Source: Brucella oryzae (GTDB lineage Bacteria > Pseudomonadota > Alphaproteobacteria > Rhizobiales > Rhizobiaceae). Taken from it: DNA of 64,000 bases. Positions 1 through 16,333 of this stretch are shown here, piece after piece. Numbering within the stretch: position 1 is the first letter of the stretch; each line of letters opens with the position of its first letter. Below the pieces are notes generated by a model that did no database searches, had not been told where the DNA came from, and saw only the letters and a program-made list of their open reading frames with translations. The stretch spans positions 496,001 to 560,000 of the forward strand of contig JAAVLL010000002.1 of assembly GCA_012103035.1 (NCBI GenBank), given 5' to 3'. Position numbers and translations under genes: made by a program.

Positions 1-2
1 GT

Positions 3-538
3 CGGTTTCTGGCCATTGCCGCGCCTGTGGCGAGCGAGCAGGCGGCGAAGGACTTTTGAGCGAGCATTCCGACCTGTCGGCAAGCCATAATTGCTGGGCC
101 TGGCGTATGGGGCAGAACTACCGTTTCAGCGACGATGGCGAGCCGAGCGGCACGGCAGGAAAGCCGATCCTGCAGGCAATCGACGGTCAGCAACTCGATA
201 ATATTGCAGTTGTGGTCACGCGCTGGTTCGGCGGCATTCTTCTAGGAAGCGGCGGCCTGATGCGCGCCTATGGCGGCACGGCTGCAACCTGTCTGCGACA
301 GGCGGAGAAAACAGAAGTTATTCCGCTGGTCGGATTTCAGTTCGCCTGCGATTTTTCAGATCATGCGCTGCTGAAGGCCCGTCTGACAGCGGTGGAAAAC
401 CTTGCCATCGCGCAAGAGAACTTCACCGGCACCGGCGTGGAAATCGCGGGCACCATGCCCATTGCCATGCGGGATGAACTATCCCGCCTCGTCACCGATC
501 TGACGCGCGGCAAGACGATTATCGCATTTGATGACTAG
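3..538 (+). CDS. YigZ/IMPACT (UPF0029) family protein, 5' truncated
   Basis: This is the C-terminal part of a YigZ/IMPACT-family protein; the start lies before the window. The family signature is clear: a DGEPSGTAGKPIL segment followed by VVVTRWFGGILLGSGGLMRAY, then a ferredoxin-like C-terminal domain (DUF1949 type). The family is linked in eukaryotes to translation control through GCN1 binding, while the bacterial role is unsettled. The reading frame is broken at about base 53-57: upstream codons read RFLAIAAPVASEQAAKDF and then hit TGA, and one extra T in the TTTT run restores AKDFLSEHSD. The gene converges tail to tail on the diguanylate cyclase, with a 4-base overlap. Family assignment is firm and function is not. 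Confidence 0.85.
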   Translation, partial: VSGHCRACGERAGGEGLLSEHSDLSASHNCWAWRMGQNYRFSDDGEPSGTAGKPILQAIDGQQLDNIAVVVTRWFGGILLGSGGLMRAYGGTAATCLRQAEKTEVIPLVGFQFACDFSDHALLKARLTAVENLAIAQENFTGTGVEIAGTMPIAMRDELSRLVTDLTRGKTIIAFDD

Positions 539-1978
539 ATCATGCCGCTCGTATATTGCTGGCGCTTGTTCTCATACATCAGCAGGTCGGCACGCTTGGC
601 AACGGTTTCCAGCTTTTCGCCCGGCATACTGGTCGCGGAGCCAATGGAAAGATTGAGCTTGAGCTGCGAATAATACTGGTTGTTGATATCGACCAGCCTT
701 TGAATGTCCTCGACCATCGCCTCGGCGCCGCGCTCATCCACATAAGGCAGCACAACTGCGAATTCGTCACCGCCGATGCGCGCCGCGTGTCCCGGCTGCT
801 TTACGGCCTCATTCAGCACTTCGCCGATGCGCCGCAGCAATCCGTCGCCTGTCGCATGGCCCCATTGGTCATTCGCGGCCTTGAGGCCGTTGAGATCGAT
901 GATGATGACGGAAACAGGCGTATGACCCTTGCGTTCCAGCCGGTTAAGCTCATCGACATAGTAGGCGCGATTGTGAAGCTTGGTCAGAACGTCGTGTTTG
1001 CCCAGATATTCCAGATAGGCTTCGGCCTTCTTGCGCGCGGTGATGTCGGTAAGCGCGATCTGCACCAGCGACCAGTCCGTCTCATGCCCTGGCAGAACCG
1101 AGAGCTGCAGAAGGACATGCCGTTCGGTGCCGTCGAGTGCATAGTTCACCACTTCGCGCCGCTGGAACAGGATACCGTTCCACAGATCGATCAGCTGTTC
1201 GCGAAACGATGATTCCATTTCATCCTTGAAGACGAGCGGCAAGTTCTGCAGCAGCGTCTTCTTGTCCGGTGCGAGGAAAGGGCCGTCGTCTCGGTATTAA
1301 CTTCGAGAACCCGGATTTCGCTCATGCACTGACGTACGAATTCCGGATGCACGTCGGTAAATACCCGAAAATCAACGATGCCGCGCTGGCGCACATCGTC
1401 CATCAATTGCTTGATGCGGCTGAAATCCTCGACCCAAAGCGACACGGGCGAATGTTCGAAAAGGCCCTGCGCGTGCTGCTTGTGGCGGTCCTGTTCGCGG
1501 CGGGCGTCTTCGCGGGCGGTCACATCCTCGATGGACAGTAGAACCCGCTCCCATGTGTGCTCATAGCCAGGCAGCACGACGCCCTTGAGCTGTATGTCGA
1601 GCCGCTTGCCGCCAAGCGAATAGTTGATGGTATCGCTTGAGAAGGCATTACCGCCATTCCAGAGCTGGACCATCTCGTCGATATGCGGGTCCAGCATGTC
1701 GTCGCGGAACACGCGTTCCAGGTTGGCGACCAGATGGCTGACGCTGTCCGCTTCGAAAAGCGAAAGCGTCTTGCGGTTGACCTTGAGAACCCGGATATGG
1801 CTGGTGCAGATGCGAAGCCGGGTCGTGTCTTCATGTAGGAAAGTCCTGAGATCGGTAACGCCAAGCGCTCGCCATTCTTCGAACTGCTTGCGCAGGCCGC
1901 TATAATCCTCAAGCCACAGGAAATTGGCGCAAGGTCAAAAATATTGGCGCTGTCACTCAAGGCAGATTCGATATTCAT
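535..1978 (-). CDS. Diguanylate cyclase with two tandem PAS-like modules (GGDEF)
   Basis: The predicted protein has about 481 residues: two homologous sensory modules and a C-terminal GGDEF domain that would make cyclic di-GMP. The GGDEF signature (RIGGDEF) is intact, with DLNGLKAANDQWGH as the substrate/metal loop. No RxxD inhibitory site precedes it. Module 1 contains LWLEDYS and ends in WERVLLSIEDVTARE; module 2 repeats this as LWVEDFS and WSLVQIALTDITARK. No membrane segment is seen, so it is probably cytosolic. The frame is broken near 1925 (CCC read as CC) and near 1280 (a missing T). I chose the ATG at 1978 (MNIESALS); an in-frame ATG at 2020 is the alternative. The PAS name for the modules is inferred from their position and their VTA/ITA-R ends. 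Confidence 0.85.
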
Positions 1979-2020
1979 GGATTTCCCGCTCGACCAATGG
2001 CTTTCCGCATTTCCGAACAC

Positions 2021-2213
2021 TGAAATGTTCAGTATGCGTCCAAACCGAATTCTCTTTTCCCATCGGGAAAAGCCGCGATGGTTTATTGGGAGCGCGTTAT
2101 ATTACGAGCGGCTCAGATAAACTAGAGGTTTTATTGTTCTGCAACTTCGCTTTCTACGCAAAACACAAAGGGCGGCTCCCAAAGGTGCCGCCCCATTTAT
2201 ATATAGGTGGCTA
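2021..2213. other. Intergenic region with three hairpins
   Basis: This 193-base gap lies between the start of the diguanylate cyclase and the end of the M20 gene. It holds small inverted repeats, GAACA-N6-TGTTC near 2016-2031 and CTTTTCCC-atc-GGGAAAAG near 2052-2070, plus the terminator described separately. The two short repeats lie upstream of the minus-strand cyclase gene and could be regulator sites, although no specific factor can be named. No coding potential is seen. Confidence 0.5.
2170..2193 (-). terminator. Rho-independent terminator of the peptide-catabolism operon
   Basis: GGGCGGC and GCCGCCC pair around a 10-base loop. On the minus strand the stem is followed by a T-rich stretch (TTTGTGTTTT). 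It sits 20 bases after the stop of the M20 amidohydrolase, where the end of the minus-strand operon is expected. Confidence 0.7.
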
Positions 2214-3386
2214 TCAATTCTCTATCGGCAGCCGATGGCGAATGAGCGTGGTCCAGTATGAGCAACCCCAGGCAATGACATCGTCGTTGAAGTCATACTT
2301 CGGATGATGGAGATTGGCGCTCGGGCCATTGCCGATATTGATCATCGCACCGGGTACTTCGTTCAGCATGAAGGCAAAGTCTTCACCGCCGAGCGTTGCG
2401 GGCATGTCGCGAGTCACGCGGTCGGAACCGGCAACTGCTTCTGCAGCGATTGCCGCCAGCTCAGTTTCCCGCTCGTGATTAACAGTGACGGGGTAGCTGC
2501 GCTGATAGTCGAGTGTGGCCTTGGCGCCGAAAGCATCGGCAATGCCCTGAACGGCGCGGGTCAATCGCTCTTCGATGTGATCGCGCACTTCCTCGCGAAG
2601 CGTACGAACCGTGCCGGTTAGCCGGATTTTCTGCGGAATGACGTTGAACGCATCGCCACCCTGAATGGTGGTGATCGAGATCACTGCGGAATCCAGTGGA
2701 TCGATGGTGCGGGCTGTCAGGGCCTGAATCGCTTGAATGAGAGCTGCCGTCACGGGAATGGGGTCTATGCTCAGCTGCGGCATGGCCGCATGTCCGCCAA
2801 CGCCTTCGATGGTTATGTCGAGAATGTCGACCGATCCCATGATTGGGCCGGAATTGATGGTAAAATGCCCGACAGCGAGATTCGGGCGGTTATGCATGCC
2901 GTAAACTTCGTTGACCGGCCAACGCTTGAACAGGCCATCATCGATCATCGCCTTGGCGCCAGCGCCACCTTCTTCGGCAGGCTGGAAGATCACGATGACC
3001 GTGCCGTCGAAGGCGCGGCTTTGCGCGAGTTCGCGAGCCGCGCCCAAAAGCATAGTCGTATGACCATCATGACCGCAGGCATGCATCTTGCCTGGTACTT
3101 TCGACGACCATTCCGCGCCGGTTTCTTCGAGGATCGGCAGCGCATCCATGTCGGCACGCAGGCCGATGGCGCGACCGGAACGGTTCGACTGACCGCGAAT
3201 GACGCCGACGACGCCGGTGCGTCCGATGCCGGTCACCACCTCGTCGACGCCTGCGGCGCGCAACGCTTCGGCCACTTTTTCCGCGGTCCGGTTCACATCG
3301 TAAAGCAGCTCGGGGTTTTCGTGCAGGTCACGACGGAACGCGACGAGTTCGTCCAGCTGGTTCGATGTCCAGTTTTCAACCGGCAT
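2214..3386 (-). CDS. M20D-family amidohydrolase (hippurate hydrolase-like)
   Basis: This 390-residue, uninterrupted ORF is an M20D metallo-aminoacylase/amidohydrolase. Metal-site motifs are visible in order: LRADMDALP (about residues 75-83), HACGHDGH (about 102-109), PAEEGGAGA (about 136-144), a dimerisation-domain GVGGHAAMP, and the C-terminal GGEDFAFM and LHHPKYDFND. Relatives hydrolyse N-acyl or N-carbamoyl amino acids, hippurate or indole-acetyl conjugates. The start at 3386 lies 2 bases from the stop of the ATC-hydrolase gene, so the two are translationally coupled. As the last gene of an import operon it probably releases an amino acid from the imported or partly processed compound. The exact substrate cannot be read from the sequence. 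Confidence 0.9.
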   Translation of the reverse strand: MPVENWTSNQLDELVAFRRDLHENPELLYDVNRTAEKVAEALRAAGVDEVVTGIGRTGVVGVIRGQSNRSGRAIGLRADMDALPILEETGAEWSSKVPGKMHACGHDGHTTMLLGAARELAQSRAFDGTVIVIFQPAEEGGAGAKAMIDDGLFKRWPVNEVYGMHNRPNLAVGHFTINSGPIMGSVDILDITIEGVGGHAAMPQLSIDPIPVTAALIQAIQALTARTIDPLDSAVISITTIQGGDAFNVIPQKIRLTGTVRTLREEVRDHIEERLTRAVQGIADAFGAKATLDYQRSYPVTVNHERETELAAIAAEAVAGSDRVTRDMPATLGGEDFAFMLNEVPGAMINIGNGPSANLHHPKYDFNDDVIAWGCSYWTTLIRHRLPIEN

Positions 3387-3387
3387 G

Positions 3388-3876
3388 TCAGGCTCCTTTT
3401 GTGTTGTCTTCAGTCGTGTCGAGGCGGTAGCGGAAATCGCAGTGGCTTGCGCCCTTCATGATGGTCTGCGTGCGTTCCAGCTTCATGTCGGGATTGTAGC
3501 CGATGCAGAAATCGCCATCGCGATTGCAGGAAAGCAGGTGACCGATATGGCCAAGGCCCATCTCGCGGTACATTTCCGAATAGCGGCAGCGCGTAACGTT
3601 GAAATCGAAATGATCTTCGCCCTGCGAGATCACGTCGATCTCCAGTGCATTTTCCTTCGTCCAGAGCGGCTGGATATCGGCAAAATCCTGTATTGTCGGC
3701 GTGTGGCCCAGCTCGTCAGCAAAGCTCTTGCCCTGTTCGATGGCCGAACGGCTGACTGCTTCACCGATTGCTGCCTGCGCTTCTTCCTCACCGGAGCGCT
3801 CTCGAATAACTTCGTAGACGTTCTTGAGAACCAGTGCTTCGATGCGGCGACGTTCAAGAATTGACATTTGATTCAT
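3388..3876 (-). CDS. L-2-amino-thiazoline-4-carboxylate (ATC) hydrolase family protein
   Basis: This intact 162-residue ORF is of the ATC-hydrolase family (Pfam ATC_hydrolase). The C-terminal core RCRYSEMYREMGL, then SCNRDGDFCIGYNPDMKLERT and GASHCDFRY, carries the conserved Cys/Arg/Asp/His positions of the family. The characterised Pseudomonas member opens the thiazoline ring of ATC to give an S- or N-carbamoyl-cysteine intermediate, which a second amidohydrolase converts to cysteine. Here the next gene is an M20-family amidohydrolase, which fits a two-step scheme. The family is broader than its founding activity, so the substrate is inferred. The gene is soluble, with no signal peptide, and it lies 99 bases downstream of the FAD oxidoreductase in the same direction. 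Confidence 0.8.
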   Translation of the reverse strand: MNQMSILERRRIEALVLKNVYEVIRERSGEEEAQAAIGEAVSRSAIEQGKSFADELGHTPTIQDFADIQPLWTKENALEIDVISQGEDHFDFNVTRCRYSEMYREMGLGHIGHLLSCNRDGDFCIGYNPDMKLERTQTIMKGASHCDFRYRLDTTEDNTKGA

Positions 3877-3975
3877 GAGCCTGACCTTTCACATGAATGC
3901 TCGTTAGTATTAGCTATGTAGCCTATCCCGGACTTCCAGACGCAACAGTTTGGACACATTTAGTTGGCCCGTTCG

Positions 3976-5267
3976 CTACCGCGGCTCGGAGAGGTCCTTG
4001 CGCCGAAGCCAGGCGAGATAAAAGGAGCGATCTTCCGCGCGACTTTATGAAAAGGCAGCGGTGCCGGTTCCGATACGGGCAAGGCAAGCTCCTGTACCGG
4101 CTCGCCGTCCAGCGCGCGTGCGAATTCACGCCCGCGATGTGCCAAGCGCAACGCCGCGCCCGTTGCAGCCGATCCACGCCCAGCCATTGGGGCCGAGCTG
4201 ATGAACGCGGGGAAAGCGATCCCACGTCATGCCGATATAGCCGCTCCACACATGGGTGATTTCCGGCTCGCCAAGTGCGGGAAGGCTTCCGCCATGTTGC
4301 GCGCCGTCTTGCGCCTGACGCGCTCAGTCACGTTGAAATCGCCCATCACCACACCGCCGGTAATCAGCCGATTGCGGGCGTCGTAGCGGAAGAAGCGCAG
4401 ATCGCCGCGCGTATCGGAAACGGCTTGCCGTCCGGGCAAAATCGTTGCGCGCAGATTATCGCTGACGGGCGCGGTCGCCATCTGCCACGAGAGTACCGGC
4501 ACAATGGTGCGGGCAAGGCGCGGGCAAGCCCTTCACGCAGTTCGCCGGTATAGGCATTGGTCGCCAGCAGAAAACCCTTGGCGCGTACGGTGGCGCTGGC
4601 AGTCTTGACCTCCCAGTGGTCGCCCACTTGAGCATAGGAAATGACCGGGCTTTGCTCGTGGATGATTGCGCCGTGGCGTTCGGCAGCGGCGGCAAGTCCC
4701 CGTGCGAAAGCCAGCGGATTGATATGACCTCCGGTCGGGTTGAACATGCCGCCATACCAGAAATCGCTGCCCAACAGCCGCGATGTTGCAGCACGGTCGA
4801 AAAACTCTGCCGGGAAGCCGAAGCGTTTCCATGCTTCCACGCGGGTTTGCGACAGCTTCACCCGGCCCGGCGAATGGGCAGGCTGGAACCAGCCGTTCTG
4901 CTCGGCCTCGGCCTCGATGTTTTCGTCGCGCACGATGGAGAAAAGAATGTCGGCGCTATTGCCGATCAGTCTGGCAAAACGTTCACCCGATGCGCCGTAG
5001 CGTTTGGCGATTGCATCCGGCTCGGCGGAAGTCATGGTCGGGATGACCTGTCCGTTGTTGCGCCCGGACGCGCCCCAGCCGACCGCATTGCCTTCAAGCA
5101 GGATGACGCGCTTGCCGCGCTTTGCCAGATGGAGTGCGGCGGAAAGCCCGTAAAGCCGCCGCCGACAATGGCGACATCGGCTTCCGCGTCTTTCGCAAGC
5201 GTGGGGCCGGTACGCGTTCAGGTGCGGTGGCGGCCCAAATGGATGGTGGAAATTCTATCTTCTGCAT
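3976..5267 (-). CDS. FAD-dependent oxidoreductase, DAO family (gamma-glutamylputrescine oxidase-like)
   Basis: Assembled across several frame breaks, this gives a protein of about 430 residues, the normal length for DAO/PuuB-like flavin oxidases. The N-terminal FAD-binding signature reads as VAIVGGGFTGLSAALHLAKRG once the breaks near 5200 and 5145 are closed, followed by GWGASGRNNGQV. A mid-protein GGHINPLAFARGL and a later RYDARNRLITGG are typical of the family. Further breaks lie near 4515, 4235 and 4020, and the C-terminus ends KDLSEPR. The start ATG (MQKIEFPP) is 5 bases after the stop of the ABC ATPase, so it belongs to the transporter operon. Members oxidise amines or N-methyl/N-substituted amino acids, so it probably deaminates or dealkylates the imported compound. 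Confidence 0.8.
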
Positions 5268-5271
5268 TGTG

Positions 5272-6909
5272 TCACGCGTTTTCCAAAATGGGTGGCGTCC
5301 AACTCTTGCCGGGAATGGAGGCAAGCAGGCGCTGTGTATATTCATGTTGCGGGTTGGCGAAGACTTCGGCTGTCAGACCGGCTTCGGCGATCTCGCCCTT
5401 CGACATGACGATGATGCGGTCGCAGAGCTGCGCGGCAACACGCAAATCGTGCGTTACGAAAAGCAGCGACAGGTTGAGCCGTTCGCGCAAATCGGCCAGA
5501 AGCCGCAGAACTTGCGCCTGCACGGAGACATCGAGCGCGGAGACCGGTTCGTCGGCGACAATGATGCGCGGCTCCAGAGCAAGGGCGCGGGCAATGCCGA
5601 TGCGTTGGCGCTGCCCGCCCGAGAACTCGTGAGGAAATCGGTCGGCGGCAGCGGGCGAAAGCTCGACCAGCTCCAGCAATTCGCGGGCCTTTGCGTGCGC
5701 CTCATCCTTCGGCATGCCATGGACGATTGGCCCCTGCGCAATCAGGTCCACCACGCGGCGGCGCGGATTGAGCGAGGCCATCGGGTCCTGAAAGACCATC
5801 TGGATGTCCTTGCGCATGGCCCGCACTTCACGCGGGCTGGCGCTCAGAAAATCCCTGCCATTCACATCGACCTTGCCGCTATCGGCTTCCAGCAGACGGG
5901 TGACGATGCGCGAAACGGTGGTCTTACCCGAACCGCTTTCGCCGACGACGCCAAGCGTTTCGCCCTGACGCAGCTCGAACGAAAGGTCCTTCACGGCGGG
6001 AACGGCGCTGCGTTTTCCGCTCAGCAATCCGCCGCGCGCCTTGAAGGTTTTGCGTAAAGCGCTCGCCCTGAGAATGATCGGCTGCGCTTCAACTGACGGC
6101 TTCGGTTCGGGCGGGGTGAGGGCTGGAACCGATGCGATCAGCGCCTTTGTGTAAGCGTGCTGCGGATGGTTCAGCACTTCGTTTGCCGGACCTTCCTCAA
6201 CCAGTTCGCCAAGCCGCAGCACCGCGACACGGTCGGCAATTTCCGCCACGACGCCGAAGTCATGCGTGATGAACAGAATGCCGGTATTGTGTTCGCGTTG
6301 CAGGTCGCGGATCAGTTTCAGGATCTGTGCCTGCGTGGTCACGTCGAGTGCCGTGGTCGGCTCGTCGGCGATGATGAGGCGCGGCTTCAGGATCAGCGCC
6401 ATCGCAATCATGACGCGCTGGCGCTGCCCGCCCGAAATCTGGTGCGGATAGGCGTTATAGGCGGATTCCGGGTCCGGAATTTTTACCTCTGCCAGCATGT
6501 CCAGTACGGCGGCACGACGCTCCTTGCGTCCAAGCTTCGTGTGCAGGCGCAGCACTTCATCGATCTGCCAGCCGACCGTCTTCTGCGGGTTGAGCGCGGT
6601 CATCGGCTCTTGAAAGATCATGCCGATCCGGTCGCCGCGCAGCTTCTTCATATCGGCTTCGCTGAGTGAATAAAGATCGGTGCCTTCAAGCTTGATCGTG
6701 CCATGGGTTACGCGCACATGCGGTTCCGGCAGAAGGCGCATGATCGCGCCCGCTGAAAGCGATTTTCCGGAGCCGCTTTCGCCGACGAGGCAGACGATTT
6801 CACCGGGATTGATTGTCAGTGTCAGGTCCTGCAGGGCGTAAGGGCGGTCGGCGCCCTTCGGCAGCGCGATCTGCAGGCTTTTGATTTCGAGAACGGGTGC
6901 GGCGGTCAT
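5272..6909 (-). CDS. Dipeptide/oligopeptide-type ABC transporter, double ATPase
   Basis: This intact 545-residue protein fuses the two nucleotide-binding subunits that are separate as DppD and DppF in enterobacteria. Domain 1 (about residues 1-260) has Walker A GESGSGKS, signature SGGQRQR and a Walker B with [10 protein letters not shown]. Domain 2 (about 285-540) repeats these as [15 protein letters not shown] and [10 protein letters not shown]. It would power the permease pair encoded just upstream: its ATG overlaps the permease stop at 6909, and the FAD oxidase starts 5 bases after its own stop. No frame break is seen, unlike most neighbours. The opp/dpp family handles di/oligopeptides, opines and glutathione-like compounds, so the class of cargo is known but not its identity. 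Confidence 0.93.
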
Positions 6910-7783
6910 TATTTCTTCTGCCTCGGATTAAGCGCGTCGTTCAGGCCTTCGCCAAGCAGGCTGAAGGAAAGAACGGTGAGCAGAATGGCGATGCCGGGAA
7001 TGACCGAGCAGAACCAGTCGGTGCGCAACACGGCGCGACCCTGGCCGATCATGTTGCCCCAGCTTGCATAGTTCGGATCGCCGAGACCAAGGAAGGCGAG
7101 AGCGCTTTCCATCAGGATGGAGGTGGCCATCACCACGGATGCAAAGACAATCACCGGCGGCAGGGCATTCGGCAGGATTTCGCGAAAGATGATCGAGACG
7201 TTGCCGACACCCAGATTGCGCGCGGCATCGATGAATTCGCGCTTGCGCAGCGCCAGAAATTCGGCGCGCACCATGCGGGCCGGCGCAGTCCACGACACGA
7301 TGCCTATGCAGATGATGATGTTTTCGATGGAAGAGCCGAAGATTGCCACCAGTGTCAGAAGCAGAACGAAGCTTGGAACAGTCTGGAAAGCCTCGGTGAT
7401 ACGCATCAAAACGTCATCCACCCAACCACCATAATAGCCGGCAAGAGCGCCGATGATGATGCCGATCACGATGGAAATCAGGGTGGCCACCACGCCGATC
7501 AGAAGCGAGATGCGCGCGCCATGGAAGATGCCTGCCATGATATCGCGCCCGAGCTGATCGGTGCCAAGCGGCGTGGCAGCATTGACGAATGGCCAGACGA
7601 GCGGGTCGCCAGCGCGCCGCAGCGGGTCACCGGGCGTAATGACATCGGCCAGCAGCGCAATCAGGACCACGGCAATGAAGAGGATAAGGCCCAGCACGGC
7701 GGCGCGGTTGCGGCTGAAACGCTGCCACAGAATTTTGCGCGCGAGACCTGCGGGCGGGTGAGGGAGAGGTCCTGTGAAGTCAT
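6909..7783 (-). CDS. Peptide-type ABC transporter permease (DppC-like)
   Basis: This is an inner-membrane permease of about 291 residues with the N-terminal DppC extension, six predicted membrane segments, and the coupling motif near EFIDAARNLGVGNVSIIFREILPN. The ATG at 7783 overlaps the TGA of the preceding permease gene (ATGA). The frame is broken near 7762, where a missing C in the run after LSLT must be restored to join MTSQDLSLT to PPAGLARKILW. Without that correction an artificial 426-residue fusion with the upstream permease appears. It pairs with the DppB-like subunit to form the translocation channel. Confidence 0.9.
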
Positions 7784-8759
7784 GACAGTTCGATCCTGAA
7801 TCAAGCCGCGCATAGATGAGATCGGTGATGAAATTCACGATCACCACCAGCACCGAGCACAGGAAGATGATGCCCATGAGCGTGTTGAGGTCGCGCTTGA
7901 TCACGGAGGTGTAGGCGAGCTGACCGAGACCGGGCAACGAGAAGATTGTCTCGATCACGACGGAGCCGCCAAGCACAGTCGAGAATTGCAGTCCGAGCAG
8001 CGTCACGACGGGCAGAAAGGCGTTGCGCATGATGTGATGGAACATCAGCCTTGCACCGCTGGCGCCCTTGGCGCGGGCCGTGCGGACATAATCGAGGTCG
8101 GCCACTTCCAGCACGCTGGTGCGCATCAGGCGCATATAGAATGCAAGATAGATGAGCGAAAGCGCCGTCGTCGGCATGACAAGGTGCACGGCAATATCCC
8201 AGACATTCTTCCAGCCGGTATAAAACCGGCAATCGTCTTGTAGCCGCCGACCGGCAGCCAGCCGAGCTTGACGGAAAAGATGAACATCAGGATGAGGCTG
8301 AGGAAGAAGCTTGGCATGGCATAGAAGACAAGGCCAAGCGTGGAAATCGCATTGTCGGTCAGGGAATATGCCTTGCGCGCCGCGAGAGCTCCAAGCGCAA
8401 TACCGAAAATGAAGGCCACCGAAAGCGACGAAACCATGAGCAGGAGGGTCGGCACGAGGCGGGCCATCAGTACATCCAGCACCGGCTGCTCGTAGACATA
8501 GGACCAGCCGAAATCGAACTGCGCCAGCTTGGTCATGTAAATCCAGAGCTGCGTCCAGATCGGTTGGTCGAGGCCATATTCAGCGCGCAGATTGGCGACG
8601 AATTGGGGGTCTGCGCCGCCCATGTCGCCGACAAGCGCGTCCACGGTATCGCCGGGCGCGAGCTTGATCAGCAGGAATGACCCGATCATGATGAGGAGGA
8701 TGACGGGGATCGCCTGCAAGATGCCGCAGCGCAAAAGTCAGGAGCGGGGGCAGGGGCAT
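7780..8759 (-). CDS. Peptide-type ABC transporter permease (DppB-like)
   Basis: This is an inner-membrane permease of about 327 residues. The N-terminal hydrophobic segment ends FLLIKLAPGDTVDALVGD, a DppB hallmark (LAPGDP type). The coupling loop DLDYVRTARAKGASGARLMFHHIMRNAFLP and the C-terminal NFITDLIYARLDPR match the family. Breaks: near 8742 (a missing T separates MPLPPLLTF from LRCGIL), near 8215, and near 7797 just before the stop. The ATG at 8759 is chosen because it directly precedes the family N-terminus. The gene lies 84 bases after the binding-protein gene. Confidence 0.88.
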
Positions 8760-8811
8760 TGCGGATTATCCTGCAAGATAGGCATTTCAGCATTCAGGGA
8801 AGAGGAAGCCA

Positions 8812-8829
8812 CTGCCGGATGACCGGCAG
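8812..8829 (-). terminator. Intercistronic hairpin in the transporter operon
   Basis: CTGCCGG-atga-CCGGCAG is a perfect 7-base stem lying between the binding-protein stop and the DppB-like start. There is no strong T-run, so it is more likely an mRNA-stabilising or attenuating hairpin. Such hairpins are common after binding-protein genes, whose transcript must be more abundant. Confidence 0.5.
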
Positions 8830-8843
8830 CGGCTGCACGTTGC

Positions 8844-10430
8844 TTATTGGTCGATCCACAAATCGTACCAGCTGGAAGAATCCCAGCGTGGCGTGTTGTG
8901 GTGGTTCTTCAAGACCTTGTTGGTCACGCCGACGAACGGATGTTCGATGGCGAAGATGACCGGCAGGTCCTTCATCTCAAGCTGCTGGATCTGGTGATAA
9001 AGATCGGCACGCTTGGCCGGGTCGAGCTCGCTCGCGGCCTTGTCGATCAGGCTGTCCATTTCATCCGACTTGTAGTCGAACTGGTTGGACCATGCGGTGC
9101 CGACCGGAGCGCCGGAACGCAGCCAGACGGTTGTGGAAACAGCCGGGTCAGAGCGGAACTGATGCCAGCCGCTGGCCGTGTCGAAGTCGTGATCGCGATA
9201 GACGCCGTTGAGGAAGCCCGGTGCATCATTGGTCAGGATTTCGACGTCGATGCCGACTTCCTTCATGGCCTGCGCATAATATTCAGCCCAGAGCTGCGTA
9301 TATTCACCCCATGGCGCCGGGCGATGGCGCAGCTTGAAGCGGATGCCGTTCTCCTTGACCGGATAGCCGGCTTCGTCGAGAAGTTTCTTCGCCTTTTCAA
9401 CATCATATGGGTAAGTCTGGACCTGATCCGTATAGTTGGCACCACCGGTGCTCGGGATCGGGCCACGGCCCGGCTTGGCATAGCCGCGCATGATCGTCTT
9501 GATCGCGAAATCGATGTCGAGCGCGTGATAGATCGCCTGACGAACCTTCAGATTGGCAAGGATCGGATTGCGCAGGTTGAACTCGACGGTCGAGTGGGCA
9601 ACGTTGTTTTCGAAACCCTTGGTGCCGGTGTCGAAGCGGCCATCCTTCTGGAGGCGCTCGGTATCCGACATGGAGATGCCGTTGAAGGCGGTTTCCATCA
9701 TTTCACCGGCTTCAAGCGCTGCGGCTGCGGCGGCCTTGTCCGGCATGAAGCGCCAGACCACGCGGTCGAGATAAGGATATTCCTTGCCACGCCAGTAATC
9801 GTCATTACGCTCGGCAATAATGTGCTGGCCGCGTTGATATTCGACGAACTTGAATGGCCCCGTGCCAACCGGCGCGGCGTTGTACTTGTTCTTCAGAATA
9901 TCCGTGCCTTCATAAAGATGCTTCGGCACTGGATGACCGAGATCGGGCATGGCTGCGACGAGCAGTTCCAGCGGCATCGGCTTGGAATAGCGGAACACTG
10001 CTGTGTAAGGATCGGTGCAATCGACAGCTTCGAGATTGGCCTGAAGCGTGGTCGAATAGTTGAGGAGTTTCTTCCAGAGGTTCATTGCGCTGTAGGAAAC
10101 GTCATCGCAGGTGAAAGGCTGGCCGTCATGCCAGCGCACATTCTCGCGCAGCTTGAAGGTGATGGCCTTGCCGTCTTCCGAAGACGACCAGCTTGTGGCC
10201 AGAACCGGCACATAGCCCTCGTAAGTGCGGTCAATCAGCGGCTCCATGATGCGGCCGGTGATCTGGTAGACGCCGGTGGAGGCGCGCAGCGCAGGGTTGA
10301 GCACACCCTGCTCGGTGTTCATATGGACGATGACAGTGCCGCCGCGCTTCACTTCTTCGGCGTGGGAAGACGCCGTAGCAAGCGAAAACGCTGCGAGAAA
10401 CAAGCCAAAGCCAGCTTTTCTGATATGCAT
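8844..10430 (-). CDS. ABC transporter substrate-binding protein, SBP_bac_5 (peptide/opine type)
   Basis: This periplasmic binding protein has 528 residues. The ATG at 10430 is preferred over upstream in-frame starts because AGGGGAA lies just upstream and the product begins with a clean signal peptide (MHIRKAGFGLFLAAFSLATASSHA, cleaved near Ala-24). The mature protein starts EEVKRGGTVIVHMNTEQGVLNP, typical of family-5 binding proteins, with the family pattern VRWHDGQPFTCDDV near residues 115-128. It is the first gene of a likely seven-gene operon (binding protein, two permeases, double ATPase, oxidoreductase, ATC hydrolase, M20 hydrolase). The ligand is therefore probably a modified amino acid, peptide or opine that the last three enzymes break down. 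Confidence 0.92.
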   Translation of the reverse strand: MHIRKAGFGLFLAAFSLATASSHAEEVKRGGTVIVHMNTEQGVLNPALRASTGVYQITGRIMEPLIDRTYEGYVPVLATSWSSSEDGKAITFKLRENVRWHDGQPFTCDDVSYSAMNLWKKLLNYSTTLQANLEAVDCTDPYTAVFRYSKPMPLELLVAAMPDLGHPVPKHLYEGTDILKNKYNAAPVGTGPFKFVEYQRGQHIIAERNDDYWRGKEYPYLDRVVWRFMPDKAAAAAALEAGEMMETAFNGISMSDTERLQKDGRFDTGTKGFENNVAHSTVEFNLRNPILANLKVRQAIYHALDIDFAIKTIMRGYAKPGRGPIPSTGGANYTDQVQTYPYDVEKAKKLLDEAGYPVKENGIRFKLRHRPAPWGEYTQLWAEYYAQAMKEVGIDVEILTNDAPGFLNGVYRDHDFDTASGWHQFRSDPAVSTTVWLRSGAPVGTAWSNQFDYKSDEMDSLIDKAASELDPAKRADLYHQIQQLEMKDLPVIFAIEHPFVGVTNKVLKNHHNTPRWDSSSWYDLWIDQ

Positions 10431-10730
10431 TCTCTGTTCCCCTGAAGGACGTTGAGGGAGGGCTTTCGAGCCTCTTTTCCCGCAGCTCCCAATATTGTTC
10501 AAGCCCCTGAAATTGCTCAAAAGCTGCTCCAGAGGATCTTTATTCTATGCAAGCACTGATATGCTAGAATCCATGGCGATATTGTCAAGATAAACTAATA
10601 TATCGGGCAAAATTGGTAAAATTTCTCGACCGGCCTGCGTTAATAGATGTCGATTTTCTACGACGGAGTTTGTTGATGACCGGATTTCTCCCGAGCTGAA
10701 CACAAACTCGGACAAAACGAACGCGATACG
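10431..10730. other. Upstream region of the peptide-catabolism operon
   Basis: About 300 bases with no gene recognised. The part just before 10430 contains the ribosome site. Further upstream (10550-10630) the DNA becomes AT-rich (TATGCTAGAAT, TATTGTCAAGATAAAC, AATATATC), which fits the operon promoter and a regulator site. I see no exact palindrome and cannot assign a factor. Confidence 0.4.
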
Positions 10731-10962
10731 GTCCGGATTACCGGCGCCGGGTCTGGCATCGGCGCTGCCATGGCGAGACGGTTCGCACGAGGGCTGGCGA
10801 CGCCGCTTCGCGCGTCATCCGGGTTTCGATCTCTCCCGCATGGATGATGTCATCCAGCTCGCGGATATGGCCGAAACCACGCTCTATGTTGCCAATATGA
10901 ATCCCAAGGTTACGATCCACGAGATCGTTCTGGCTCCGACGAAAATAGAAAGGAAAATTTGC
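10731..10962 (+). pseudogene. Internally deleted short-chain dehydrogenase relic
   Basis: Two pieces of a classical SDR are pressed together. Bases from about 10731 read VRITGAGSGIGAAMARRFA, the glycine-rich coenzyme site (TGxxxGIG). From about 10822, in a different frame, the sequence reads HPGFDLSRMDDVIQLADMAETTLYVANM and then VTIHEIVLAPT, the usual SDR C-terminus. The central 130-150 codons, including the catalytic Ser/Tyr/Lys, are missing, and there is no ATG before the first piece. One base deletion cannot explain this, so it is a genuine relic. The C-terminal piece stays open and in frame into the ATG of the VOC gene. Recognition rests on short motifs only. Confidence 0.6.
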
Positions 10963-11822
10963 ATGTCTCATCCGGTCAAAGGCGTCGATCATATTTTTCT
11001 GCTGGTCGACGATCTGGAGGATAGTGCCGAGCAATATCGCCGTTTCGGATTCACGCTGAGCCCACGCGGTCTCCACAGCAAGGAGAAGGGCACCGGCAAC
11101 TACACAATCATGTTCCCGGAAGATTATTTCGAGCTGCTTGGCATCGTTGCCGAGACGCCGGGCAATCTGCACCAGCGCGAGAAACTGGCGGCGCAGGGCG
11201 AAGGCCTCCATGCCATCGCCTGCCGCATCGACAATGCGCGTGATGCGAAGGCGGAACTGGGCGCACTTGGCATCAAGACCGGCGAGGTCGGTGCATTTCA
11301 GCGTCCTGTTCAGCTGCCAAACGGCGGCGAGGGTGTTGCGGCTTTTGAAACCGTATCTTTCGCGGAAAGTGAAGTGCCGCAGGGCATGGTGTTCATGTGT
11401 CAGCACAAGACCCGCGAAACGGTCTGGCTGCCGGAACTGATCGAACATGCAAATGGTGCAAATGGCCTTTCCGCCATTGTTGCTATTTCATCCGATCCCG
11501 AAACTGCGGCCAAAGGTTTTGCGCGCCTGTTCGCGGACGGAAAGGCAGAGACGCAGGATGGCGGCTGGAAGGTTTCGACCGGCACGCGCTCGGCGGACAT
11601 ATTGGTTGTGAGTGAGGAAAAAGCCGCAGAAATCTATCCCGGCGTGGATTTTGCCAAAACACCGGGCAGGGCTTTCGCCGTCCTGCGTATCCGGGTCGCT
11701 TCGCTGGACAGGACACGGGTGTTCTGGATGCCAATGGCATTTCCCACGTGAAGACATCTGCAGGCATCGCCGTGCTGCCGGAAAATGCCAGCGGCACGGT
11801 TCTGGAATTCTCGGAACAGTAA
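10963..11822 (+). CDS. VOC-fold (glyoxalase-like) protein
   Basis: This protein of about 287 residues starts MSHPVKGVDHIFLLVDDLED, the classic opening of a vicinal-oxygen-chelate domain with a metal-ligand His. The domain (glyoxalase-like, Pfam Glyoxalase_3 type) continues through the residues FELLGIV and HAIACRI, and a second, weaker repeat fills the C-terminal half. I use the ATG at 10963, although the frame is open upstream into an SDR relic. A frame break near 11700 must be closed so that the product ends SGTVLEFSEQ. Members are dioxygenases, isomerases or resistance proteins; nothing here narrows the substrate. It faces betC tail to tail across a bidirectional terminator. Confidence 0.75.
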
Positions 11823-11833
11823 GAACTTGAACG

Positions 11834-11857
11834 GGCGGGGCCAGTGGCCCCGCTTAT
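11834..11857. terminator. Bidirectional terminator between VOC gene and betC
   Basis: GCGGGGCC-agt-GGCCCCGC forms a strong GC stem. It is followed by TTATTATATT on the plus strand. It lies between two convergent stops at 11822 and 11863 and can serve both genes. Confidence 0.75.
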
Positions 11858-11862
11858 TATAT

Positions 11863-13388
11863 TCAGCGCGGAAAGCGCTGGTTTTCTTCCAGCACGTTCA
11901 GGTCCATGTGGTTGCGCATGTAGCGCTCGGATGCCTTTGCAGCGGCTGGTAGTCCCATGGATAATAGGCACCGTTGCGCAATGCCGGATAGACGACGTGA
12001 CGACGAGCCTGACTGGCCCGGACGTCGGCATCGTAGCGTTCCAGATTCCAGCGTGTTTCAGCTTTGGCCAGAAGGTCGTCCAGAACGGCTTTGAAGTCCG
12101 GCAGCTCGGCCAGATTGCGCAACTCGTCCGGATCGTCGGCGAGGTTGAACAGTTGCGGCGGGTCAGCGCGGCAAAGGTTGAGCTTCCAGTTACCGTCACG
12201 CAGCGAGACCATCGGTGCAATGGTACCCTCGGCTGCATATTCGACCGGAACCGCACCGCGTTCGGCGGTGCCGGAGGCAACATCTGTCAGAGACACGCCG
12301 TCGGTCCATGGCATGATGCCCCTGAGGTCGATACCGGCAAGGTCGGCCAGTGTCGGCAGGACGTCGAGCGTCGAGACGGGCGCGTCCACGCGGCCCGGTT
12401 TCAGTTGCGGAGCCGCGACCATCAGCGGGACGCGCGCCGAACCATCGAAGAAACTCATCTTGAACCACAGGCCACGTTCACCAAGCATATCGCCGTGATC
12501 GGAAGTGAAGACCACAATCGTGTCATCCGTCATGCCGCAGCGTTCGATCACATCGAGCAGGGTGCCGATCTTTTCATCCACATAGGAGATATTGGCAAAA
12601 TAGGCCTGACGCGCCGTGCGAACCTGTTCGCGGGTCAGGTCATAATCCTCGGCCTTGCAGGCCCGCAACAGGCGTTCCGTATGCGGGTCGATCTCGCTTT
12701 CAAGCAGAGGCGCGATTTTGGGATCCAGTTCGGAAATGTCCTCATAGAGATCGAAGAAGCGCTTGCGTGCTACGTAAGGATCGTGGGGATGCGTGAAGCT
12801 GACTGTCAGACACCATGGCCGCTGGTCGTGACCGCGAGCCAGATCATAGAGCTTCGCTTCGGCCTGATAGGCGACTTCATCGTCATATTCGAGCTGGTTG
12901 GTGATTTCGGCGGAACCTGCTCCGGTGATGGAGCCGAGATTGTGATACCACCAGTCGATGCGCTCGCCTGGCTTGCGATAATCCGGCGTCCAGCCGAAAT
13001 CTGCCGGGTAGATGTCGGTGGTGAGCCGCTGTTCAAAACCGTGCAGCTGATCCGGCCCGACGAAATGCATCTTGCCGGAAAGCGCCGTCTGGTAACCAGC
13101 GTTGCGGAGATGATGCGCATAGGTCGGGATTTCAGACGAAAACTCTGCCGCATTGTCGTAAACACCGGTCCGAAACGGCAGCTGGCCCGACATGAACGAC
13201 GCGCGCGCCGGTGCGCAGAGCGGGCTTGCCGTATAGCAATTGGTAAAACGGGTGGAACGTTCGGCAAGCTTTCTCAGATTGGGAACATGCAGGAATTCGG
13301 CAGGGCCATCCGGAAAGAACGTGCCGTTCAGCTGGTCGACCATGAGAACGAGGATATTCGGCTTTTCATTGTGCGGGACCGTTGGCAA
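11863..13388 (-). CDS. betC: Choline-sulfatase
   Basis: This sulfatase of about 509 residues hydrolyses choline-O-sulfate to choline and sulfate in the cytosol, feeding glycine-betaine synthesis. The opening KPNILVLMVDQLNG carries the first metal-ligand Asp. The modification motif is LCAPARASFMSGQ, with Cys-58 expected to become formylglycine. A later FTSDHGDMLGERGLWFK is the second metal motif, and the C-terminus RYMRNHMDLNVLEENQRFP matches the choline-sulfatase C-terminal extension. A missing A near 11942 breaks the frame. The start is uncertain: the frame is open to 13517, a TTG at 13388 gives the family-like N-terminus, and no strong ribosome site is visible. It follows choX on the same strand. 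Confidence 0.9.
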
Positions 13389-13398
13389 GTGTGGGAAC

Positions 13399-13427
13399 GC
13401 GAAACGGCGGACGCTGAAACGCCCGCC
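13399..13427 (-). terminator. Hairpin between choX and betC
   Basis: GGCGGACG-N6-CGCCCGCC (minus-strand sense) forms an 8-base stem with one G-T pair in the short choX-betC gap. There is no clear T-run. It may reduce read-through so that the binding protein is made in excess of the sulfatase. Confidence 0.45.
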
Positions 13428-13449
13428 TTTTAAGTCTCGTTGTTGACGG

Positions 13450-14394
13450 TCAGAGACCGAGGCTTGCCTTGACGGCTTCCGCGCCCGGTTCGCCCTTGAA
13501 GGTGGTGACGCCCGCAAGCCACTTGTCGATCTGGTCCGGATGCGCCTTCAGCCATTCCTTGGCTGCTGCGGGACCTTCCGCGCCCTCATCCAGAATCTTG
13601 CCCATCAGCTCATTCTCGATATCGACGGTGAAAATGAGGTTCTTGAAGAATGTCGCGGCATTCGGACATTGTGCGGCCCAGCCGGTGCGGCCAAGCGTAT
13701 AGACCTCCGCACCACCGAAATTCGGGCCGAAATAGTCATCGCCGCCCGCGAGATATTCGATCTTCAGCTTGTTGTTCATCGGGTGCGGTGCCCAGGCCAG
13801 GAACACGACCCATGCCTTATCCTTGTTCTTGCGGTCCACCTGCGCGAGCATGGCCTGCTCGCTCGATTCCACCATCTTCCAGCCGTCGAGCTTGAATTTC
13901 TGATCCTCGATGATTTTCTGGATGTTCTGATTGGCAGGTGCGCCCGGCTCGATGCCGTAAATCTCCTTGCCGAACTTGTCGGCATGGGCGGCAAGATCGG
14001 CAAAGTCCTTCACGCCTTCGCTTGCCACATAATCCGGCACAGCCAGCGTGAACTTCGCCCCTTCGAGGTTTTTCACGATGACTTCGGCGGCTTTCGCCTT
14101 GTCGAGATCGTCGCGGAACTTCTGTTGTGCGGGCATCCAGTTGCCGAGGAAAACGTCAAGATTGCCGGTCTTGAGCGCCTCATAACCGATCGGCACGGAC
14201 ATGGTCTTCACGTCGGGCTTATAGCCCAACCCCTCTAGCAATACGCTTGCGACGGAGTTGGTGGAGGTGATGTCGGTCCAGCCCGGATCGGACAGCCGGA
14301 TGGTTTCGCAGGCCGCGGGATCGGCAGCAGAAGCGGCTCCTGAAAGCCCAGCCAGTGCCGTGAACGCCAGTGCTGCAATCTTCAAATAGCCCAT
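13450..14394 (-). CDS. choX: Choline ABC transporter substrate-binding protein
   Basis: This intact 314-residue periplasmic protein has a signal peptide ending ASA near residue 23. The mature part reads CETIRLSDPGWTDITSTN, then GYEALKTGNLDVFLGNWMPAQ and GIEPGAPANQ, the pattern of ChoX and related OpuAC-type betaine/choline binding proteins with conserved Trp/Asn ligand-box residues. The permease and ATPase genes (choW, choV) are not adjacent here and must lie elsewhere. It is divergent from a LysR regulator 115 bases away and is followed by betC. The module therefore captures choline or choline sulfate for use as osmoprotectant or sulfur/carbon source. Confidence 0.9.
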   Translation of the reverse strand: MGYLKIAALAFTALAGLSGAASAADPAACETIRLSDPGWTDITSTNSVASVLLEGLGYKPDVKTMSVPIGYEALKTGNLDVFLGNWMPAQQKFRDDLDKAKAAEVIVKNLEGAKFTLAVPDYVASEGVKDFADLAAHADKFGKEIYGIEPGAPANQNIQKIIEDQKFKLDGWKMVESSEQAMLAQVDRKNKDKAWVVFLAWAPHPMNNKLKIEYLAGGDDYFGPNFGGAEVYTLGRTGWAAQCPNAATFFKNLIFTVDIENELMGKILDEGAEGPAAAKEWLKAHPDQIDKWLAGVTTFKGEPGAEAVKASLGL

Positions 14395-14509
14395 TGATGA
14401 CCCCTCTGATTAATTAAAACGGATTATGTCTCGAATTCCTACTTTAAGGAAAACATCATTTAGGCTAAGGAAAACCCATTCATTTTTATCGAAGCTATAG
14501 AGAATATTT

Positions 14510-15420
14510 ATGGTTTCTCCATCCTGGGACCTTGGCAGTCTTGGCGTTTTCGAAGCGGTGGGACGATTGGAAAATCTGACCCTTGCAGCGCGTGAACTCG
14601 GCATGACGCAACCGGCGGTCAGCTATCAGATAAAGCGCATCGAGGAGCGTCTGGGCGTTGCATTGTTCGCCCGGCGGGCCCGCGGCGTCGAGATATTGCC
14701 GGAGGGCCGCATTCTTTATGAGGCCGTGCGCTCCGGTCTCGATGGAATCGAGGAGGCGGTGCAGCAGATCAAACGCCGCCAGCGTGCGCCGGGATTGCGT
14801 ATCGCGACCGATTACGGCTTTGCGACATTCTGGCTGATGCCGCGTGTCGCGCAGTTTCGCCCGAAACATCCGGAAGTGGATGTCCGCATCACGGCCTCGT
14901 CCATGCTCCAGCCTCTCGACCGACGTGATGCAGATATTTCGATCCTGTTCGGCGGTCGCGAGGATTTTCCGAAAGACGCCATCGCTTTCATCGGCGAACA
15001 AGTCGTGCCGGTCTGTTCCCCGGCCTATCTTGCCCAGCATGGCCCGTTTCCGGAGGGAAACGGCTCGGTGCGGCCTCGCTCCTGCATCTTGATACTTTGC
15101 AGGGTGACCGCTGGTTCACGTGGCAGTCTTGGCTCGATGCTATTGGTGAGGACATAGAGGATGACAATTACGGGCTGGTCTTCAACACCTATAATCTGGT
15201 GATCGAGGCAGCTATCGCCGATCAGGGCGTGGCGCTTGGCTGGGCGGGGCTGATCGACGGGGCCGTGCAGCGCGGACAGCTTGTTCATGCTTGCGCGGTG
15301 TCCCAGACCAGTGACAAGGGCTACTGGCTGATTTTCAACCCGGATATTTCTACCGGGGCGCGCAAGCTCGCACTGGAATTGCTGGGTGCGAGGAATGAGG
15401 AACGGTATTTTAAGAAATAA
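14510..15420 (+). CDS. LysR-type regulator of choline-sulfate use
   Basis: This LysR-type activator has about 304 residues. The N-terminal helix-turn-helix reads LGVFEAVGRLENLTLAARELGMTQPAVSYQIKRIEERLG (residues about 8-46), and the rest is a periplasmic-binding-like effector domain. A missing base near 15073 splits the ORF, and the second part ends EERYFKK. Divergent placement next to choX-betC matches the family known as choline-sulfate-utilisation transcription factors, so it probably activates choX-betC from the shared 115-base region. Effector identity (choline or choline sulfate) is inferred from context. Confidence 0.85.
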
Positions 15421-15553
15421 GCTAATTTAGCAAAGTTGATCGCAATCAATGAAATCCGGCCCCGATATGGGTTGATGGGGCAGGCGCGTGTTCCATATCG
15501 CTTTTGGGATGCGTTGCATTGCCATTCACCAATCACGCAGGAAAGGATGAATT

Positions 15554-16333
15554 ATGTCGGCAAACGGTAAGGTTGCTCTTGTCACGGGCGCAGCACAGGG
15601 CATTGGGCGCGGTATTGCGTTGCGGTTGGCCAAGGACGGCTTTGATATCGCGCTGGTCGACCTGAAGGCCGACAAGCTTGATGCGGTCAAGAAGGAAGTC
15701 GAGGCGCTGGGCCGCAAGGCATCCACCTTCTCTGCCGATGTCAGCAAGCGTGATGATGTCTATGCCGCGATTGACCATGCGGAAAAGACGCTTGGCGGTT
15801 TCGATGTCATTGTCAACAATGCCGGTATTGCGCAGGTGCAACCCATAGCCGATGTCAAGCCTGAAGAGGTCGAGCGGATATTTCGCATCAATGTCGATGG
15901 CGTTCTGTGGGGCATTCAGGCCGCAGCTGCCAAGTTCAAGGCGCGCAAGCAGAAGGGCAAGATCATCAATGCCTCTTCCATCGCGGGCCATGACGGGTTT
16001 GCGATGCTGGGCGTCTATTCGGCCACAAAATTCGCGGTGCGTGCGCTGACCCAGGCTGCAGCCCAGGAATATGCAAGCGCCGGGATCACCGTGAACGCCT
16101 ATTGCCCCGGTATTGTCGGCACCGATATGTGGGTCGAAATTGATGAACGCTTCTCGGAAATCACCGGTGCGCCGAAAGGCGAGACCTACAAGAAATATGT
16201 GGAAGGGATCGCGCTTGGCCGCGCCCAGACGCCGGACGATGTGGCGGCTCTGGTGTCGTTCCTCGCAAGCCCGGATTCCGACTACATCACCGGTCAGGCC
16301 ATCCTGACGGACGGTGGTATCGTCTATCGCTGA
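15554..16333 (+). CDS. Diacetyl/acetoin reductase-like short-chain dehydrogenase
   Basis: This intact 259-residue classical SDR has the coenzyme motif VTGAAQGIG (residues about 10-18), NNAG near residue 88, the catalytic Ser in NASSIAG near 140 and YSATK near 154. The C-terminal half, with [12 protein letters not shown] and the closing [15 protein letters not shown], matches the (S)-acetoin-forming diacetyl reductase (BudC/ButA) group closely. It would reduce diacetyl or acetoin with NADH in the cytosol. A ribosome site (AGGAAAGG) lies 8 bases before the ATG. It appears to be a single-gene unit, followed by a hairpin. Confidence 0.88.

What the first reader, a model, noticed from the sequence alone, without database searches (positions are those of the whole stretch)
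2214..10430. Seven-gene importer-enzyme operon with an ATC-hydrolase family protein
An opp/dpp-type importer is followed, with 0-100 base gaps, by a DAO-type FAD oxidase, an ATC-hydrolase family protein and an M20 amidohydrolase, ending at a clear terminator. In the known cysteine route, ATC hydrolase is followed by a carbamoyl-cysteine amidohydrolase. Here a dedicated importer and an oxidase are added, suggesting a catabolic pathway for an imported thiazoline-containing or N-acylated amino-acid compound. I do not recognise this gene set as a described system.
Basis: partly seen in the sequence, partly recalled or inferred. Interest (0 to 1): 0.72.

Follow-up and report, generated by a model that had tools for sequence, protein, structure and literature searches.

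The report
Predicted thiazolidine-to-cysteine import and breakdown operon
A conserved bacterial gene set appears to import a ring-shaped relative of cysteine and open it in three enzyme steps to recover cysteine, a pathway for which the paper searches made here showed no description.

Summary
The seven genes are there, at the stated coordinates and in the stated order on the minus strand. In the window copy the oxidase and both permeases are interrupted by frame breaks; the assembly is only 69% complete, and close relatives carry intact copies. The gene set is not a chance neighbourhood: of 80 relatives chosen by the ATC-hydrolase-family protein, 59 keep oxidase, ATC protein and M20 side by side and 52 keep all seven in order. 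In 13 of 80 the importer is exchanged for a branched-chain-amino-acid type while the oxidase stays near the ATC protein. Two unrelated PLP enzymes recur in the cluster: a SufS-like cysteine-desulfurase relative (33 of 80) and a Cds1-like cysteine-desulfhydrase relative (4 of 80, plus an Agrobacterium plasmid). The nearest solved relative of M20 is YxeP, which frees cysteine from N-acetylcysteine. I therefore propose: import of a thiazolidine carboxylate, oxidation to a thiazoline, ring opening to an N-acylcysteine, deacylation to cysteine. Substrate and activities are inferred, none shown. Interest moderate.

The parts
8844..10430 (-). periplasmic solute-binding protein (SBP_bac_5, Opp/Dpp/Nik type)
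   Evidence: Pfam 282.4 bits; 73-82% identical in the 30 seven-gene loci outside the Brucella clade
7797..8759 (-). OppB-type permease, interrupted (pieces in several frames)
6909..7787 (-). OppC-type permease, interrupted near its N-terminus
5272..6909 (-). fused OppD-OppF-type ABC ATPase
3982..5261 (-). DAO-type FAD oxidase, interrupted (pieces in several frames); intact in relatives
   Evidence: Pfam DAO 90.4 bits on the longest piece; piece coordinates; intact relative L031 213.6 bits
3388..3876 (-). ATC_hydrolase-family protein (PF14196); predicted V4R-like fold; invariant Cys97, Cys117, Cys146
2214..3386 (-). M20 amidohydrolase of the TIGR01891 type; nearest solved relative YxeP
2150..2215 (-). 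hairpin with U-rich tail, probable terminator
   Evidence: not listed by the consensus scan
10963..11819 (+). divergent VOC protein (Glyoxalase_3), interrupted near its end; divergent VOC in 54 of the 56 loci with this importer
10654..10944 (+). remnant of a divergent SDR gene lacking about 130 internal residues
   Evidence: intact SDR in relatives

Best explanation
A catabolic operon for a cysteine-derived ring compound, most likely a 2-substituted thiazolidine-4-carboxylate (the spontaneous adduct of cysteine with an aldehyde). The ABC importer takes it up; the DAO-type flavoenzyme oxidises the cyclic secondary amine to a thiazoline; the ATC_hydrolase-family enzyme opens the thiazoline ring to an N-acylcysteine; the M20 enzyme removes the acyl group and frees cysteine. 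In relatives a PLP enzyme in the same cluster would then take sulfur from the cysteine. Shown here: families, conserved order, exchange of importers, presence of the two cysteine-enzyme relatives. Inferred: substrate, order of steps, every catalytic activity.
For: Conserved as a unit: 59 of 80 loci keep DAO-ATC-M20 contiguous, 52 keep all seven in order, 30 of these outside the Brucella clade. Of 35 same-genus genomes (own included) 30 have the ATC protein and the SBP at 88% or more, 5 have neither (one of the 5 is only 72% complete); the oxidase at E up to 1e-90 is missing in those 5 and in G031. Importer exchanged for a Liv type in 13 of 80, none with both. SufS-like class V PLP enzyme in 33 of 80, with Lys236, His128 and Cys382 (numbering of L059:7021-8652) at least 97% conserved in 34 sequences. 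Cds1-like PLP enzyme right after M20 in 4 of 80 and on an Agrobacterium plasmid; rare otherwise, 2 of 60 relatives and not in the own genome at E up to 1e-40. M20's nearest solved structure is YxeP, 271.6 bits, an N-acetylcysteine deacetylase (PMC9706529, abstract and passages). A Bacillus sarcosine oxidase oxidises L-thioproline as a minor substrate (PMC12582975, passages); sarcosine oxidases are among the oxidase's weak solved relatives (1y56_B, 43 bits). Bacteria are said to convert thiazolidine-4-carboxylate to N-formylcysteine (PMC9814826, passages).
Against: No activity has been measured. The SufS-like and Cds1-like proteins score under their curated cut-offs (155.2 of 475.1; 561.7 of 600), and neither gene is in the window genome at the thresholds used. 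The five Cds1-like loci fall in one ATC clade of 6 rows, so they may be one event. Relatives of the SufS-like protein elsewhere have mixed neighbours. PF14196 is broad: 9 of 80 loci show the ATC protein without oxidase, M20 or importer (four of them lie on records of at most 10.2 kb), as do 15 of 20 wider loci, leaving aside ATPase matches at 31-35%. M20 is missing from the stretch held in 6 of the 13 Liv-type loci and in L054 and L091. G059 keeps a 79% SBP in the neighbourhood of an AstE/AspA-type deacylase without ATC or DAO, and G078 has VOC, importer and DAO together without ATC or M20. VOC and SDR are unexplained.
Confidence: 0.45

Rival explanations
1. A sulfur-free route: an imported N-acylated or peptide-like cyclic imino acid (proline, pipecolate or hydroxyproline type) is deacylated by M20, oxidised by the DAO enzyme, and the cyclic imine is opened by the ATC-family protein.
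For: Best NCBIfam model of the intact oxidase is L-pipecolate oxidase AmaA, 259.6 bits. A paralogue (43%) in a congener lies between a Liv-type importer and an aconitase X gene, which by recall belongs to hydroxyproline breakdown. Binding proteins of this type include peptide binders.
Against: Does not explain the two cysteine-enzyme relatives in the cluster nor the YxeP kinship. The AmaA score is far below its cut-off of 600.
Confidence: 0.27
2. The classical ATC pathway with a dedicated importer: imported L-ATC is opened to carbamoylcysteine and then hydrolysed to cysteine, the oxidase having a side role.
For: PF14196 membership. In Sinorhizobium meliloti pSymA a family member is followed by a carbamoylase-type M20 (TIGR01879 462.8 bits), an arrangement like that of the classical route.
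Against: The window M20 is not carbamoylase type (38 bits, cut-off 204). The oxidase lies within 2.5 kb of the ATC protein in 62 of 80 loci. The S. meliloti protein groups with an Azospirillum one (98/88) and not with the window's set; its branch is long, so its place is unsure.
Confidence: 0.1
3. Breakdown of a larger thiazolidine or thiazoline natural product (for instance opened beta-lactams or thiazoline metallophores) rather than of simple aldehyde adducts.
For: Opp/Nik-type binding proteins can hold large ligands. On the Agrobacterium plasmid iron-siderophore uptake genes lie downstream on the other strand, and in Martelella a non-ribosomal peptide synthetase gene lies near the Liv-type cluster.
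Against: The exchange for a Liv-type importer (13 of 80) points to a small amino-acid-like compound; siderophore or NRPS genes are not annotated in the Sulfitobacter and Azospirillum stretches (the plasmid annotation is incomplete).
Confidence: 0.08

Closest known systems
Pseudomonas conversion of ATC to cysteine (ATC hydrolase plus carbamoyl-cysteine amidohydrolase)
   Same: An ATC_hydrolase-family protein with a hydrolase that ends at cysteine; here the two genes are neighbours.
   Different: Here a TIGR01891-type instead of a carbamoylase-type M20, plus a flavin oxidase and an importer. The review passages seen give an N-carbamoyl and an S-carbamoyl variant (PMC10821248); enzyme families of that route are recalled.
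Bacillus subtilis yxe (scm) operon for S-(2-succino)cysteine
   Same: ABC importer, a breakdown step, and a YxeP-type M20 that frees cysteine from an N-acylcysteine (PMC9706529, abstract and passages).
   Different: No acetyltransferase, YxeK monooxygenase or 2SL lyase family among the products searched; a PF14196 protein and a DAO oxidase instead.
Oxidation of thiazolidine-4-carboxylate to N-formylcysteine in bacteria and mitochondria
   Same: The proposed oxidise-then-open chemistry (PMC9814826, passages).
   Different: In E. coli ascribed to enzymes of proline metabolism (reference titles); no dedicated operon in the passages seen.
Ectoine breakdown (ring opened, then deacetylated by DoeB2)
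   Same: Ring opening followed by an M20 deacylase; the M20 here scores 317.1 bits with DoeB2.
   Different: Below the DoeB2 cut-off of 550; no oxidase in that ring opening (recalled).

Membership tests
PF14196 ATC_hydrolase | domain score over Pfam's gathering score | tested here: met
   143.8 bits, cut-off 28.1
PF14196 ATC_hydrolase | ring-opening activity on L-ATC | not testable with these tools
   no assay
Classical ATC pathway | second enzyme of the carbamoylase type (TIGR01879; that this defines it is recalled) | tested here: not met
   38 bits, cut-off 204; the S. meliloti neighbour reaches 462.8 bits
Classical ATC pathway | ATC racemase | not tested
   an amino-acid racemase gene lies in three Liv-type loci (L101, L113, L135); the window genome was not searched for one
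M20 amidohydrolase subfamily TIGR01891 | score over the curated cut-off; conserved metal-ligand residues | tested here: met
   350.8 bits, cut-off 153.75; C104, H106, E139, H165, H360 at least 97% conserved in 66 sequences; their role as ligands is recalled
yxe/scm S-(2-succino)cysteine operon | YxeK monooxygenase or 2SL lyase in the operon | tested here: not met
   no such Pfam family among the seven products (pieces, where broken)
L-pipecolate oxidase AmaA (NF050086) | score over the curated cut-off | tested here: not met
   259.6 bits, cut-off 600, intact relative L031
Opp/Dpp-type ABC importer | SBP_bac_5 protein, two permeases, ATPase with oligo_HPY region | tested here: met
SufS cysteine desulfurase (gene of relatives) | score over the TIGR01979 cut-off | tested here: not met
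   155.2 bits, cut-off 475.1
Cds1 L-cysteine desulfhydrase (gene of relatives) | score over the NF052478 cut-off | tested here: not met
   561.7 bits, cut-off 600; next best, cysteine synthase A, 153.4

The most novel reading that the evidence does not exclude
A dedicated, undescribed bacterial pathway that imports thiazolidine-4-carboxylates, the adducts that cysteine forms with formaldehyde, other aldehydes or sugars, and takes them apart by oxidation, ring opening by a V4R-fold hydrolase and deacylation, returning cysteine and a carboxylic acid.
Probability: 0.3. Interest if true: 0.7.

Novelty: new variant of a known kind. Interest (0 to 1): 0.5.

Why it matters
Thiazolidines form without enzymes where cysteine meets aldehydes, yet the listings of nine searches of open-licence papers showed no dedicated bacterial pathway for them and no account of this gene set (listings are capped). 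If true, it would give a function to a conserved oxidase-hydrolase gene pair in soil, rhizosphere and marine bacteria, point to a sulfur and nitrogen source they use, and show an enzymatic role for a fold whose best solved matches are sensors and trafficking proteins.

Tried and rejected
Rfam on window 1-16000: no family at its gathering score. Promoter and terminator scans of 2000-11000 gave no more sites than shuffles (2 against 3.4; 9 against 8.6). The ATC protein has no sequence match in solved structures up to E 10. One Pseudomonas ATC paper was asked for by id and is not held. Binding-protein relatives in solved structures (peptide, haem, nickel, opine and branched-chain amino-acid binders) do not name a ligand. 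Eight stretches around the SufS-like protein elsewhere (7 of the 8 genomes): an Lrp-type regulator in 3, a DsrE-like gene in 1, otherwise mixed. Mutual exclusion of the SufS-like and Cds1-like genes (0 of 56 importer loci with both) is weak: only 4 of the 56 carry Cds1-like, and they share one clade. No test of independence on a tree was made. Selection caveat: the 80 loci were the best 80 of 89 found by the ATC protein, include close kin and species pairs (L031/L033, L062/L064), and genes were counted only above identity floors of 30-45% set per query. The 20 wider loci were picked by hand from the matches.
Full report
What is there. On the minus strand of the window, from 10430 to 2214, lie a family-5 solute-binding protein, OppB- and OppC-type permeases, a fused OppD-OppF-type ATPase, a DAO-type flavin oxidase, an ATC_hydrolase-family protein and an M20 amidohydrolase, with gaps of -1 to 105 bp. 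A hairpin with a U-rich tail follows at 2150-2215. Divergently, a VOC protein (Glyoxalase_3) at 10963-11819 and a remnant of an SDR gene at 10654-10944 run the other way. The genome is a 4.86 Mb, 6-contig assembly, 69.34% complete; the ATC protein is 98-99% identical to that of Brucella tritici, pecoris and cytisi, species formerly placed in Ochrobactrum (recalled). The oxidase, OppB, OppC and VOC are spread over several frames in the window copy, while in 23 Brucella-clade loci each is single-frame in 21 to 23. Since the assembly is poor, sequencing error is the likely cause; the breaks are described and not mended.

Is it more than chance. The 80 best loci found with the ATC protein (89 in all) were searched with the operon's proteins and with proteins met on the way. 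Oxidase-ATC-M20 is contiguous in 59 of 80, and all seven are in order in 52 of 80: 22 of 23 in the Brucella clade and 30 of 57 outside it, where identities to the window side are 62-72% (oxidase, query L031), 63-74% (ATC) and 71-78% (M20). The order of this 8-kb set is thus kept in Paracoccus, Amaricoccus, Pseudosulfitobacter, Sagittula, Celeribacter, Citreicella, Ciceribacter and others (titles). Nine of 80 show the ATC protein without oxidase, M20 or importer, four of them on records of at most 10.2 kb; the remaining loci are partial. These loci were chosen by ATC similarity. In 100 relatives chosen by kinship, 30 of 35 same-genus genomes (own included) have the ATC protein and the binding protein at 88% or more, and 5 have neither, one of them only 72% complete; the oxidase at E up to 1e-90 is missing in the same 5 and in G031. 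The set is therefore gained or lost nearly as a unit (inference).

What varies. In 13 of 80 loci a Liv-type amino-acid importer stands in place of the Opp type; none has both. Liv-type loci fall in at least two separate parts of the ATC tree, one of them inside a mostly Opp-type set. All 13 carry a second, distant ATC_hydrolase-family protein (the L064 one scores 47.4 bits, cut-off 28.1). Six of the 13 lack M20 in the stretch held. An Azospirillum plasmid shows M20, oxidase, second ATC protein, Liv importer and ATC protein. The importer is thus interchangeable and oxidase plus ATC protein are the core; in L114 and L118 the oxidase next to the ATC protein is only 47-50% identical. Of 20 wider loci 15 have none of the set, leaving aside ATPase matches at 31-35%.

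What else is in the cluster. In 33 of 80 loci lies a class V PLP enzyme nearest to SufS cysteine desulfurases (155.2 bits; its solved relatives are mostly named cysteine desulfurases): in 24 Opp-type loci, in 8 Liv-type loci, and in L079, whose record holds no importer. In 28 of the 33 it directly precedes the oxidase. Lys236, His128 and Cys382 (numbering of L059:7021-8652), which by recall correspond to catalytic residues of SufS, are at least 97% conserved in 34 sequences. In Paracoccus, Amaricoccus and Ciceribacter loci (4 of 80) and on an Agrobacterium plasmid the gene after M20 is a different PLP enzyme, nearest to L-cysteine desulfhydrase Cds1 (561.7 bits, cut-off 600). That gene is rare: 2 of 60 relatives at E up to 1e-40, not in the own genome. 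Two unrelated relatives of cysteine-cleaving enzymes in the same operon suggest that the other enzymes end at cysteine. The Brucella-clade loci have neither in the stretch held, so there cysteine would join the general pool (inference). The five Cds1-like loci share one clade of 6 rows, so they may be one event.

Mechanism. I propose import of a 2-substituted thiazolidine-4-carboxylate, oxidation to a thiazoline, opening by the ATC-family protein to an N-acylcysteine, and deacylation by M20. The chemistry has precedent: thiazolidine-4-carboxylate is said to be converted to N-formylcysteine by bacteria (PMC9814826, passages). The side group, the order of steps and each activity are inferred. 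The VOC and SDR proteins are not explained: a divergent VOC stands in 54 of 56 Opp-type loci; SDR is full-length in 11 of 23 Brucella-clade loci and not found in 12. Lrp/AsnC genes near the cluster (10 of 80 by tblastn; annotated) fit amino-acid breakdown.

Against. Nothing was assayed, the PLP enzymes fall under curated cut-offs, and PF14196 is broad. G059 holds the importer (79%) with an AstE/AspA-type deacylase a few genes away and no ATC or oxidase; G078 holds VOC, importer and oxidase without ATC or M20. Importer and oxidase may therefore serve more than one substrate. Siderophore-uptake genes flank the Agrobacterium cluster and an NRPS gene lies near the Martelella one, which leaves room for a larger thiazoline compound.

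Compared with the known. The classical ATC route uses, by recall, a carbamoylase; a Sinorhizobium meliloti pair on pSymA has such an arrangement, and its ATC protein does not group with the window's, though its branch is long. The yxe operon shares importer and YxeP-type enzyme but not the middle steps. No paper describing the present gene set showed in the listings of nine searches, which cover open-licence papers only. I call it a new variant of a known kind.

Noticed in passing
window 10654-10944: Remnant of an SDR gene lacking about 130 internal residues; the gene is full-length in 11 of 23 Brucella-clade loci and not found in 12.
   Followed up: partly
window 11898-14394: Choline-sulfatase-like protein (Sulfatase, Choline_sulf_C) and an OpuAC-type binding protein beside the operon.
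   Followed up: no
window 535-2020: A gene with a GGDEF motif in its translation, split over frames in the window; a single 495-residue frame in L031.
   Followed up: no
L143:1784-9707: In a congener a 43% oxidase paralogue sits between a Liv-type importer and an aconitase X gene, perhaps a hydroxyproline-type locus.
   Followed up: partly
L141:8198-16078: VOC, Opp importer and oxidase together without ATC or M20 proteins.
   Followed up: partly
L140:516-9780: The importer (binding protein 78-79%) near a LysR gene and, a few genes away, an AstE/AspA-type deacylase, without ATC or oxidase.
   Followed up: partly
L148, L149, L150: Relatives of the SufS-like enzyme stand divergent to an Lrp-type regulator.
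   Followed up: partly
L034: In the Brucella cytisi locus the oxidase, ATPase and OppB are not single-frame; the assembly was not examined further.
   Followed up: no
L135:10500-20453: In Martelella an NRPS gene and biosynthesis-type genes lie beside a Liv-type importer with an ATC-family protein and a different flavin oxidoreductase.
   Followed up: no
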